Program-made: the position numbers and the translations under genes
In this document: positions 41,058 to 41,282 of the stretch, piece after piece
How the letters are laid out: each line of letters opens with the position of its first letter
Numbering within the stretch: the stretch's first letter is position 1
The notes under the pieces: generated by a model
Database searches by the model: none
What the model was told of the DNA's origin: nothing
The model's input: only the letters and a program-made list of their open reading frames with translations
NCBI GenBank assembly: GCA_903905735.1
Contig: CAIVHU010000072.1
Coordinates: 1 to 64,000 of the forward strand
From: an uncultured beta proteobacterium
GTDB taxonomy: Bacteria > Pseudomonadota > Gammaproteobacteria > Burkholderiales > Burkholderiaceae_C
Length of the DNA stretch: 64,000 nt
Direction: 5' to 3'

Positions 41058-41282
41058 ATGAATCAGAACCCTCAAATGCAAGTTGATTTTCTGCACGCAG
41101 AAAAATCACTGCCCTTTTGGATGATTTTTGCGCCGGTATTTGTCATCTTTCTTGTTGCTTCGGTGTTTGCTTCGCTGGTTGGCATGCAATGGAGATCTCT
41201 GTTACCTGGTGCTGAAAATTCAAAAGGCTTTGTTGAAGGTGTGAGTTCGGCGGTTTACACACTCATGTCATACATTATTTAG
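41058..41282 (+). CDS. Unknown single-helix membrane protein between pufB and pufA
   Basis: A 74-residue protein: a polar N-terminus (1-18), one transmembrane helix (about 19-44), then an LLPGAEN turn and an amphipathic tail (about 51-74). The helix has no histidine, so it is not a third antenna chain of normal type. AAGGA lies nine bases upstream, and pufA starts 12 bases after its stop. In layout it resembles PufX and PufQ, small one-helix proteins of the puf operon in Rhodobacter, but I see no firm identity. A role in closing or assembling the LH1 ring is inference. Confidence 0.8.
   Translation: MNQNPQMQVDFLHAEKSLPFWMIFAPVFVIFLVASVFASLVGMQWRSLLPGAENSKGFVEGVSSAVYTLMSYII

What the first reader, a model, noticed from the sequence alone, without database searches (positions are those of the whole stretch)
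41058..41282. A novel one-helix membrane protein gene wedged between pufB and pufA
In known purple bacteria pufB and pufA are normally adjacent with a gap of about a dozen bases. Here a 74-codon gene with its own Shine-Dalgarno sequence lies between them. The product has a polar start, one helix without a histidine, and an amphipathic tail after LLPGAEN. That layout recalls PufX (gap-maker in the LH1 ring) and PufQ, but neither belongs at this place. Being co-transcribed with both LH1 chains, it could be made at near-stoichiometric levels and be an LH1 ring subunit, gap-maker or insertion factor.
Basis: partly seen in the sequence, partly recalled or inferred. Interest (0 to 1): 0.9.

Follow-up and report, generated by a model that had tools for sequence, protein, structure and literature searches.

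The report
Pigment-less LH1 beta-like protein gene
Between the two genes for the bacterial light-harvesting ring lies a third one that makes a relative of one ring subunit which has lost its pigment-holding histidine; it is common in this bacterial family and known there only as an ORF of unknown function.

Summary
The ORF at 41058-41282 is a real, conserved gene between pufB and pufA of a Rhodoferax-like genome, but not a one-off: 39 of 48 PufLM-bearing genomes in a 299-genome family sample have it there. It is in print as ORF2 (Rubrivivax gelatinosus) and, by place and size, ORF74 (Roseateles, co-transcribed with pufBA), function unknown. New here: it descends from the LH1 beta chain (PufB), not from PufA. 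Its profile finds only antenna chains in the PDB (best E 1.4e-16) and aligns with tailed PufBs over 73 columns (99.4%; PufA 7%). The BChl-ligand histidine is gone in 124 of 125 distinct locus sequences, while the C-terminal tail is the best-kept part. In the loci examined it sits only beside tailless PufB, never beside tailed PufB, and no PufQ-like gene was seen upstream. PufQ-like genes are profile relatives of it (98%), so the haem/BChl regulator PufQ may belong to the same beta-derived family; classical PufQ alone gives only 47%. Best reading: a pigment-less 'pseudo-beta' acting in or on RC-LH1 through its tail. Identity is well supported; mechanism is inference, with PufQ-like action the main rival.

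The parts
41058..41282 (+). ORF2/ORF74-type gene: 74-aa pseudo-beta protein (the finding)
   Evidence: conserved; LH beta homology
41044..41048 (+). Shine-Dalgarno-like AAGGA of the ORF
   Evidence: read; a like word in 140 of 155 loci
41109..41180 (+). membrane helix, residues 18-41
   Evidence: AlphaFold2 model of low confidence, mean pLDDT 66.5
41172..41174 (+). codon of Ser39, at the place of the beta-chain BChl-ligand histidine (six residues before Trp45)
   Evidence: alignments; His in 1 of 125 distinct locus homologues
41190..41279 (+). conserved C-terminal tail, residues 45-74 (WR..LPGAE...GV..AVYT..S), with a predicted helix at 58-73
   Evidence: mean pairwise identity 65% against 39% (helix) and 17% (N-terminus), n=125
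40882..41025 (+). pufB, LH1 beta chain, short (47 aa, no tail), both histidines kept
   Evidence: NCBIfam NF040862 E 2.3e-25; Pfam LHC
41288..41494 (+). pufA, LH1 alpha chain
   Evidence: NCBIfam NF040861 E 3.6e-18
41606..42430 (+). pufL, reaction-centre L subunit
   Evidence: PF00124 E 6.7e-98; L or M by gene order
42447..43424 (+). pufM, reaction-centre M subunit
   Evidence: PF00124 E 2.2e-107; L or M by gene order
41531..41549 (+). hairpin followed by a T-run between pufA and pufL, possible 3' end of an abundant pufB-ORF74-pufA segment
   Evidence: 2 such sites found in the region, 1.4 expected by chance, so weak

Best explanation
The gene encodes a 'pseudo-beta': a paralogue of the LH1 beta chain that most likely arose once from a tailed PufB, lost the histidine that holds bacteriochlorophyll, and kept and tightened the C-terminal tail, while the neighbouring PufB kept the pigment site and lost the tail. 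Supported by computation: homology to beta and not alpha, a single clade, loss of the ligand, tail conservation, purifying selection, fixed place, and exclusion of tailed PufB in the loci examined. Inferred: it inserts like a beta chain (N-terminus in the cytoplasm, tail in the periplasm), is made in quantity from the pufB-ORF74-pufA message, packs against alpha chains or the ring edge without adding a pigment, and docks with its tail helix on the periplasmic face of the RC-LH1 complex. It would thus serve as a structural or assembly subunit, possibly at one special place of the ring.
For: PDB sequence search: antenna chain 8z81_B, E 7.8e-6 with the single protein (8 of 10 matches are antenna chains, two at E about 0.5 are not), 5.9e-13 with profile A1 (20 of 21 antenna), 1.4e-16 with profile A2, where all 40 chains listed are antenna proteins by name, 30 of them named beta. 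hhalign: tailed PufB 99.4%, score 106 over 73 columns; short PufB 95.5%, score 41; PufA 7%, score 17.6; reversed and region-shuffled controls of the ORF74 comparisons at most 16.7. Pfam LHC is the family most often hit by members (10 of 36, weak, best E 0.002). Tree of 122 chains: ORF74 one clade (100/99). Ligand site in 125 distinct locus sequences: Q 84, S 17, T 7, K 4, A 3, E 2, N 2, L 2, C, R, G, H 1 each; the PufBs of the same loci keep both histidines (123 by pattern, the other two read). All 155 ORF74 loci have a tailless PufB; none of 28 tailed-PufB loci has ORF74. In the family sample 39 short with ORF74, 7 long without, 1 short without, 1 cut contig left out (Fisher p 1.3e-7, not corrected for kinship). 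Roseateles: ORF74, pufA and pufB share the major 1-kb puf transcript and showed the greatest changes.
Against: No protein, complex or phenotype data were found. The membrane helix is only moderately conserved (39%). Gln, the commonest residue at the site, could still ligate a BChl (recalled chemistry), and two homologues have His (L019 of the loci, P0079 of the protein set). The window's own protein has no Pfam LHC match; its best Pfam match is an unrelated membrane family below its cut-off (Tmemb_185A, E 5.3e-4). The tailed/tailless exclusion rests on few independent events: 8 changes on the best PufL tree of 97 rows, but well-supported branches force only one. The beta tree has few columns and an unsettled bootstrap. 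Eight of 47 evaluable phototrophs of the family sample lack the gene, so its function is dispensable there or carried by another part. The AlphaFold model is weak (66.5) and Foldseek found nothing.
Confidence: 0.55

Rival explanations
1. It is the Burkholderiales counterpart of PufQ: not a ring subunit but a membrane factor that steers tetrapyrrole flow or BChl delivery during LH1 assembly (PufQ of Rhodobacter sphaeroides acts through ferrochelatase).
For: Profiles of PufQ-like ORFs upstream of pufB match ORF74 at 98.2-98.5%, and in four subsets at 94.2-96.9%; 11 of 12 single PufQ-like proteins give over 65%, one 22%. The PufQ-like profile, run over 62 genomes at E <= 0.01, hit 60 of them with 86 places, all in the puf locus; in the ORF74 genomes the places were ORF74 itself or the pufB position, with no separate PufQ-like gene. 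No ORF74 locus showed a PufQ-like match upstream of pufB. The one short-PufB genome of the family sample without ORF74 has a PufQ-like gene there (L157). PufQ regulates porphyrin flux through ferrochelatase (PMC5725709, start of abstract and passages).
Against: Pfam's PufQ model (PF05398) does not hit the window's protein and is not among the 25 of 29 families shown for 36 homologues. ORF74 and PufQ-like genes form separate clades (100/99 and 99/97) and ORF74 scores higher with tailed PufB (106) than with PufQ-like (69-75). Classical Rhodobacter-type PufQ alone reaches ORF74 at 47%, score 24 against control maximum 20.5. Seven family-sample phototrophs seem to have neither gene. A beta-like topology would put the tail on the side away from ferrochelatase (inference; PMC5725709 predicts a cytoplasmic C-terminus for PufQ).
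Confidence: 0.3
2. It is a minor pigment-binding beta chain that still ligates BChl through Gln (or another residue) and tunes a few ring positions.
For: Gln, a possible Mg ligand (recalled), is at the site in 84 of 125; His is there in L019 and in P0079.
Against: The site also holds S, T, K, A, E, N, L, C, R, G, and the window has Ser; the second beta histidine is absent in 121 of 125. Selection does not hold one ligand.
Confidence: 0.08
3. A gap-maker of PufX or protein-W kind that opens the LH1 ring for quinone exchange (a special case of the best explanation).
For: A pigment-less beta inside a ring could interrupt it; gaps made by unrelated proteins recur at like positions in several RC-LH1 complexes (PMC7806223, passages).
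Against: No sequence relation to PufX was found; nothing here tests a gap.
Confidence: 0.2
4. A decaying or non-coding ORF.
For: Weaker constraint than pufA and pufL; not recognised by Pfam or NCBIfam above cut-off.
Against: dN/dS 0.09-0.30, near-constant length of about 74 aa, invariant tail residues and place across genera; an ORF at this place is transcribed in Roseateles.
Confidence: 0.01

Closest known systems
LH1 beta chain (PufB, Pfam PF00556 LHC), tailed form as in PDB chains 8z81_B, 7xxf_B, 9m8m_B
   Same: Profile match over the helix and WR..LPGAE, with 7xxf_B to the end of the tail; same operon; one helix
   Different: No BChl-ligand histidine, no EFH histidine in most members, extra copy beside an intact PufB, sharper tail conservation
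ORF2 of Rubrivivax gelatinosus and ORF74 of Roseateles depolymerans
   Same: Same place upstream of pufA; Rubrivivax gelatinosus loci L046, L047 and R. benzoatilyticus L050 carry this gene between pufB and pufA
   Different: None seen; what I saw of the reports gives no family or function. The 1994 and 2002 originals were not seen, so for Roseateles the identity is inferred from place and size
PufQ (PF05398) and PufQ-like ORFs upstream of pufB
   Same: Length, one helix, profile relation to ORF74 and to tailed PufB, complementary occurrence in the loci examined
   Different: Place in the operon, separate clade, no LPGAE motif, no Pfam cross-match
PufX, protein-W, LH1 gamma
   Same: Small membrane proteins of RC-LH1
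   Different: No PufX match found; PufX lies after pufM, protein-W has three helices, gamma-like chains run the other way (papers, passages). Protein-W and gamma sequences were not compared

Membership tests
LH1 beta chain / LHC superfamily | Sequence homology to beta chains over the helix and flanks | tested here: met
LH1 beta chain / LHC superfamily | Histidine ligand to BChl in the helix | tested here: not met
   Ser39 in the window; His in 1 of 125 distinct locus homologues and 1 of 118 tallied proteins
LH1 beta chain / LHC superfamily | Pfam PF00556 above its cut-off | tested here: not met
   no match for the window; 10 of 36 members at E <= 1, best E 0.002
LH1 beta chain / LHC superfamily | Presence in the LH1 ring with pigment | not testable with these tools
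   no proteomics or structure found
PufQ | Pfam PF05398 match | tested here: not met
   not among 25 of 29 families shown; a classical PufQ scored 4.1e-39 as control
PufQ | Place directly upstream of pufB | tested here: not met
   lies between pufB and pufA in all 155 loci
PufQ | Remote homology to PufQ-like ORFs of that place | tested here: met
   98.2-98.5%, subsets 94.2-96.9%
PufQ | Remote homology to classical Rhodobacter-type PufQ | tested here: inconclusive
   47%, score 24.3, controls up to 20.5
PufQ | Interaction with ferrochelatase | not testable with these tools
   -
PufX | PufX sequence family, gene after pufM | tested here: not met
   no PufX match; place differs

The most novel reading that the evidence does not exclude
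A family of pigment-less antenna chains: the LH1 beta gene gave rise both to ORF74, a pseudo-beta built into or onto one special place of the RC-LH1 complex in Burkholderiales, and to PufQ, the haem/BChl branch-point regulator. The regulator would then be a repurposed antenna subunit.
Probability: 0.3. Interest if true: 0.85.

Novelty: new variant of a known kind. Interest (0 to 1): 0.6.

Why it matters
In the RC-LH1 structures I know of (recalled), the beta chains of the ring each carry a bacteriochlorophyll. A conserved beta chain without its ligand, present in 39 of 48 phototrophs of the family sample and on an abundant message in Roseateles, predicts an unseen subunit in a group for which I came across no solved RC-LH1 (paper listings; the PDB table does not show organisms). 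The link to PufQ, if it holds, gives that regulator an origin and predicts how it sits in the membrane. Both can be tested in culturable species such as Rubrivivax gelatinosus and Rhodoferax antarcticus.

Tried and rejected
PufX, PufQ (Pfam), LapA_dom (E 0.13) and Tmemb_185A (E 5.3e-4, below its cut-off): no or weak Pfam matches, judged chance. PufA origin: 7% by hhalign, though its score of 17.6 is slightly above its own controls (13.4); the Gemmatimonadota paper also judged that pufA2 did not come from ORF2. Fold comparison: Foldseek gave no match for the low-confidence model. Rfam: nothing at the gathering threshold in 40400-42000. RNA folding of the pufB leader: no better than shuffles in three sequences. 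Direct homology of classical PufQ to PufB: not detectable (0.4%); the link goes through the PufQ-like ORFs and ORF74. The first PufQ-like set had been picked with the ORF74 profile, so the set is the fairer test (11 of its 12 by place, length and hydrophobicity, L198 from the profile list). Without its two most beta-like members, tailed PufB falls from 98.2 to 95.9%, and in smaller subsets to 89.5, 83.9 and 68.2%. Independent-pairs test of ORF74 against tail: 8 pairs on the best tree, 1 on well-supported branches, median p 1. One classification error was corrected by hand: L198 has a tailed PufB, so the 155 / 27 / 21 become 155 / 28 / 20.

Rows chosen: A1 used 12 of the 20 proteins, the window and 4 loci; A2 used 28 of the 120 proteins then held, the window and 7 loci; hhalign used 25 of the 28 tailed PufB (three missed by the pattern), and 60 of 118 short PufB and 60 of 170 PufA at random; classical PufQ 9 of 10 (one near-copy left out); the positional PufQ set left out one near-copy (L175) and the ORFs of L169, L171 and L177, which I judged spurious. 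The PufL tree used 97 of 146 distinct PufL, thinned only among ORF74 loci.

Full report
What is there. The 74-codon ORF at 41058-41282 lies between a tailless pufB (40882-41025) and pufA (41288-41494), followed by pufL and pufM. The genome is close to Rhodoferax: a homologue 85% identical is named Rhodoferax antarcticus by NCBI. In the genus sample 7 of 60 genomes have a match. Between four Rhodoferax-type loci dN/dS is 0.09-0.30 for the ORF, against 0-0.19 for pufB, 0.05-0.07 for pufA and 0.01-0.03 for pufL where it could be computed; dS is saturated in several pairs.

How widespread. In a family sample of 299 genomes, 48 carry PufLM. Of these, 39 have pufB-ORF74-pufA, 7 have a long, tailed PufB and no ORF74, 1 (G174) has a short PufB, no ORF74 and a PufQ-like gene upstream of pufB, and 1 (G267) is cut by its contig end. 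A scan of one genome per species for the tail motif found 210 stretches, 206 confirmed, 80 fetched; of the 80 titles, those that name an order or lower are Burkholderiales names (Rubrivivax, Limnohabitans, Piscinibacter, Aquincola, Rivibacter and others) except one Rhodocyclaceae and one Fonsibacter MAG. In the order sample 39 of 300 genomes matched, tailed and plain PufBs included. The 27 PufLM-bearing genomes of the phylum sample (31 of 398) outside the family, and the 5 of the class sample (7 of 369) outside it, showed no ORF74 between pufB and pufA in the stretches fetched.

What it is. The single protein already finds an antenna chain in the PDB (8z81_B, E 7.8e-6). With 36 homologues the profile reaches 1.4e-16, and all 40 chains listed are antenna proteins by name, 30 named beta; 7xxf_B aligns to the end of the tail. 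Profile-profile comparison gives 99.4% with tailed PufB, 95.5% with short PufB and 7% with PufA, a real one-helix antenna control; reversed and region-shuffled profiles in the ORF74 comparisons stay at or below score 16.7, against 106, 41 and 17.6. So it is a beta relative. JGI names already call a number of homologues 'light-harvesting complex 1 beta chain', so the resemblance is not unseen by annotation pipelines.

What it lost and kept. Six residues before the Trp of the WR motif, where beta chains hold His, 125 distinct locus homologues have Q 84, S 17, T 7, K 4, A 3, E 2, N 2, L 2 and C, R, G, H once each; in the separate set of 120 proteins, 118 could be tallied and one (P0079) has His. 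The other beta histidine (EFH) is kept in 4 of 125. The PufBs beside them keep both (123 by pattern, the other 2 read). Mean pairwise identity is 17% in the N-terminus, 39% in the helix and 65% in the tail. The model predicts helices at 6-14, 18-41, 45-48 and 58-73, at low confidence. Selection therefore appears to act most on the tail.

Division of labour. Of 208 loci held, 203 have pufB and pufA. The 155 with ORF74 all have a tailless PufB; the 28 with a tailed PufB never have ORF74; 20 have a tailless PufB and no ORF74. Of those 20, 15 have a PufQ-like or PufQ gene upstream of pufB and 5 have none that I could see. Many loci were fetched through ORF74 and many are kin, so the fair figure is the family sample (Fisher p 1.3e-7 without correction for kinship, G267 left out). 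On the PufL tree ORF74 needs 8 changes at best, but supported branches force only one. In the tree of 122 beta-like chains, with few columns and an unsettled bootstrap, ORF74 is one clade (100/99), nearest, with weak support (83/72), to tailed PufBs of another Burkholderiales family (L180, L181). I read this as one duplication of a tailed pufB, after which one copy kept the pigment and the other the tail. L177, whose ORF74 has a tail like that of tailed PufB and PufQ-like proteins, looks intermediate.

The PufQ connection. The ORF74 model also finds the ORF upstream of pufB in other phototrophs, the place of PufQ. A mostly positional set of these ORFs matches ORF74 at 98.5%, tailed PufB at 98.2%, classical PufQ at 91% and PufA at 0.8%. 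Without the two most beta-like members the values are 96.9% for ORF74 and 95.9% for tailed PufB; in smaller subsets ORF74 stays at 94-96% while tailed PufB drops to 68-89%. Run over 62 whole genomes, the PufQ-like profile matched 60, with 86 places, all in the puf locus. Against it: classical PufQ alone does not see PufB (0.4%) and sees ORF74 at 47%; the Pfam PufQ model hits one of the seven PufQ-like ORFs tried, weakly (E 0.021). One PufQ-like ORF (L170) has a histidine at the ligand place. I take common descent of PufQ-like genes and beta as likely, and of classical PufQ as probable but unproven.

What is in print. The Gemmatimonadota paper (PMC12817894, passages and section 8 read) cites ORF1 upstream of pufB and ORF2 upstream of pufA in Rvi. 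gelatinosus from Nagashima 1994, of unknown function, and judges that pufA2 did not come from ORF2. The Roseateles paper (PMC10037100, passages read) lists ORF74 with a locus tag between those of pufB and pufA, co-transcribed with them in a major 1-kb transcript, with the greatest changes on starvation. The 1994 and 2002 originals were not seen (for the latter). The passages I saw of the Rhodoferax antarcticus genome paper do not mention the ORF (PMC5374385). Searches that could have shown a described function or a beta relation showed none in their listings; most subscription journals are outside that library. PufQ's action through ferrochelatase is from PMC5725709 (passages). PMC9640540, PMC7806223, PMC3176799, PMC8954225 and PMC12654162 were seen in passages only.

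How it may work. Beta chains have the N-terminus in the cytoplasm and the C-terminus in the periplasm (recalled). With that topology the conserved tail helix lies on the periplasmic side, where RC-L, RC-M and the cytochrome subunit have faces (recalled). Its gene sits within an abundant message in Roseateles, which favours a product needed in quantity. A chain that packs like beta but brings no pigment would suit a ring end, a gap or a docking place. None of these steps is shown. The PufQ-like alternative is nearly as open.

Noticed in passing
window 40828-40866: Two short stem-loop-like elements (TGCGCGGGTTGTGCGCA, and GGCCGAAAGGC followed by a T-run) just before the pufB ribosome site are unchanged in L002 and L004 and recur with changed letters in L011, L030 and L046, not clearly in L005 and L006 (alignment A5). 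Folding energy is no better than shuffles in the three sequences tried.
   Followed up: partly
window 41531-41549: Terminator-like hairpin between pufA and pufL, at the place expected for the end of a stable pufB-ORF74-pufA segment.
   Followed up: no
L170 about 2077-2323 (+): A PufQ-like ORF upstream of pufB that has a histidine at the beta-chain ligand position, beside a tailed PufB.
   Followed up: partly
L177 about 2308 (+): An ORF74-like protein with Ser at the ligand place and a tail like that of tailed PufB and PufQ-like proteins; no pufA was found before the contig ends.
   Followed up: no
L019 and protein P0079: The only two ORF74-type proteins seen with a histidine at the ligand place: retained, or regained.
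   Followed up: no
L088, L094: Record titles name Bordetella parapertussis and Candidatus Fonsibacter lacus, yet the contigs carry a puf locus with ORF74: probably misnamed or mixed MAGs.
   Followed up: no
L073: PufB ends in a changed frame, perhaps a sequencing error or a recent frameshift.
   Followed up: no
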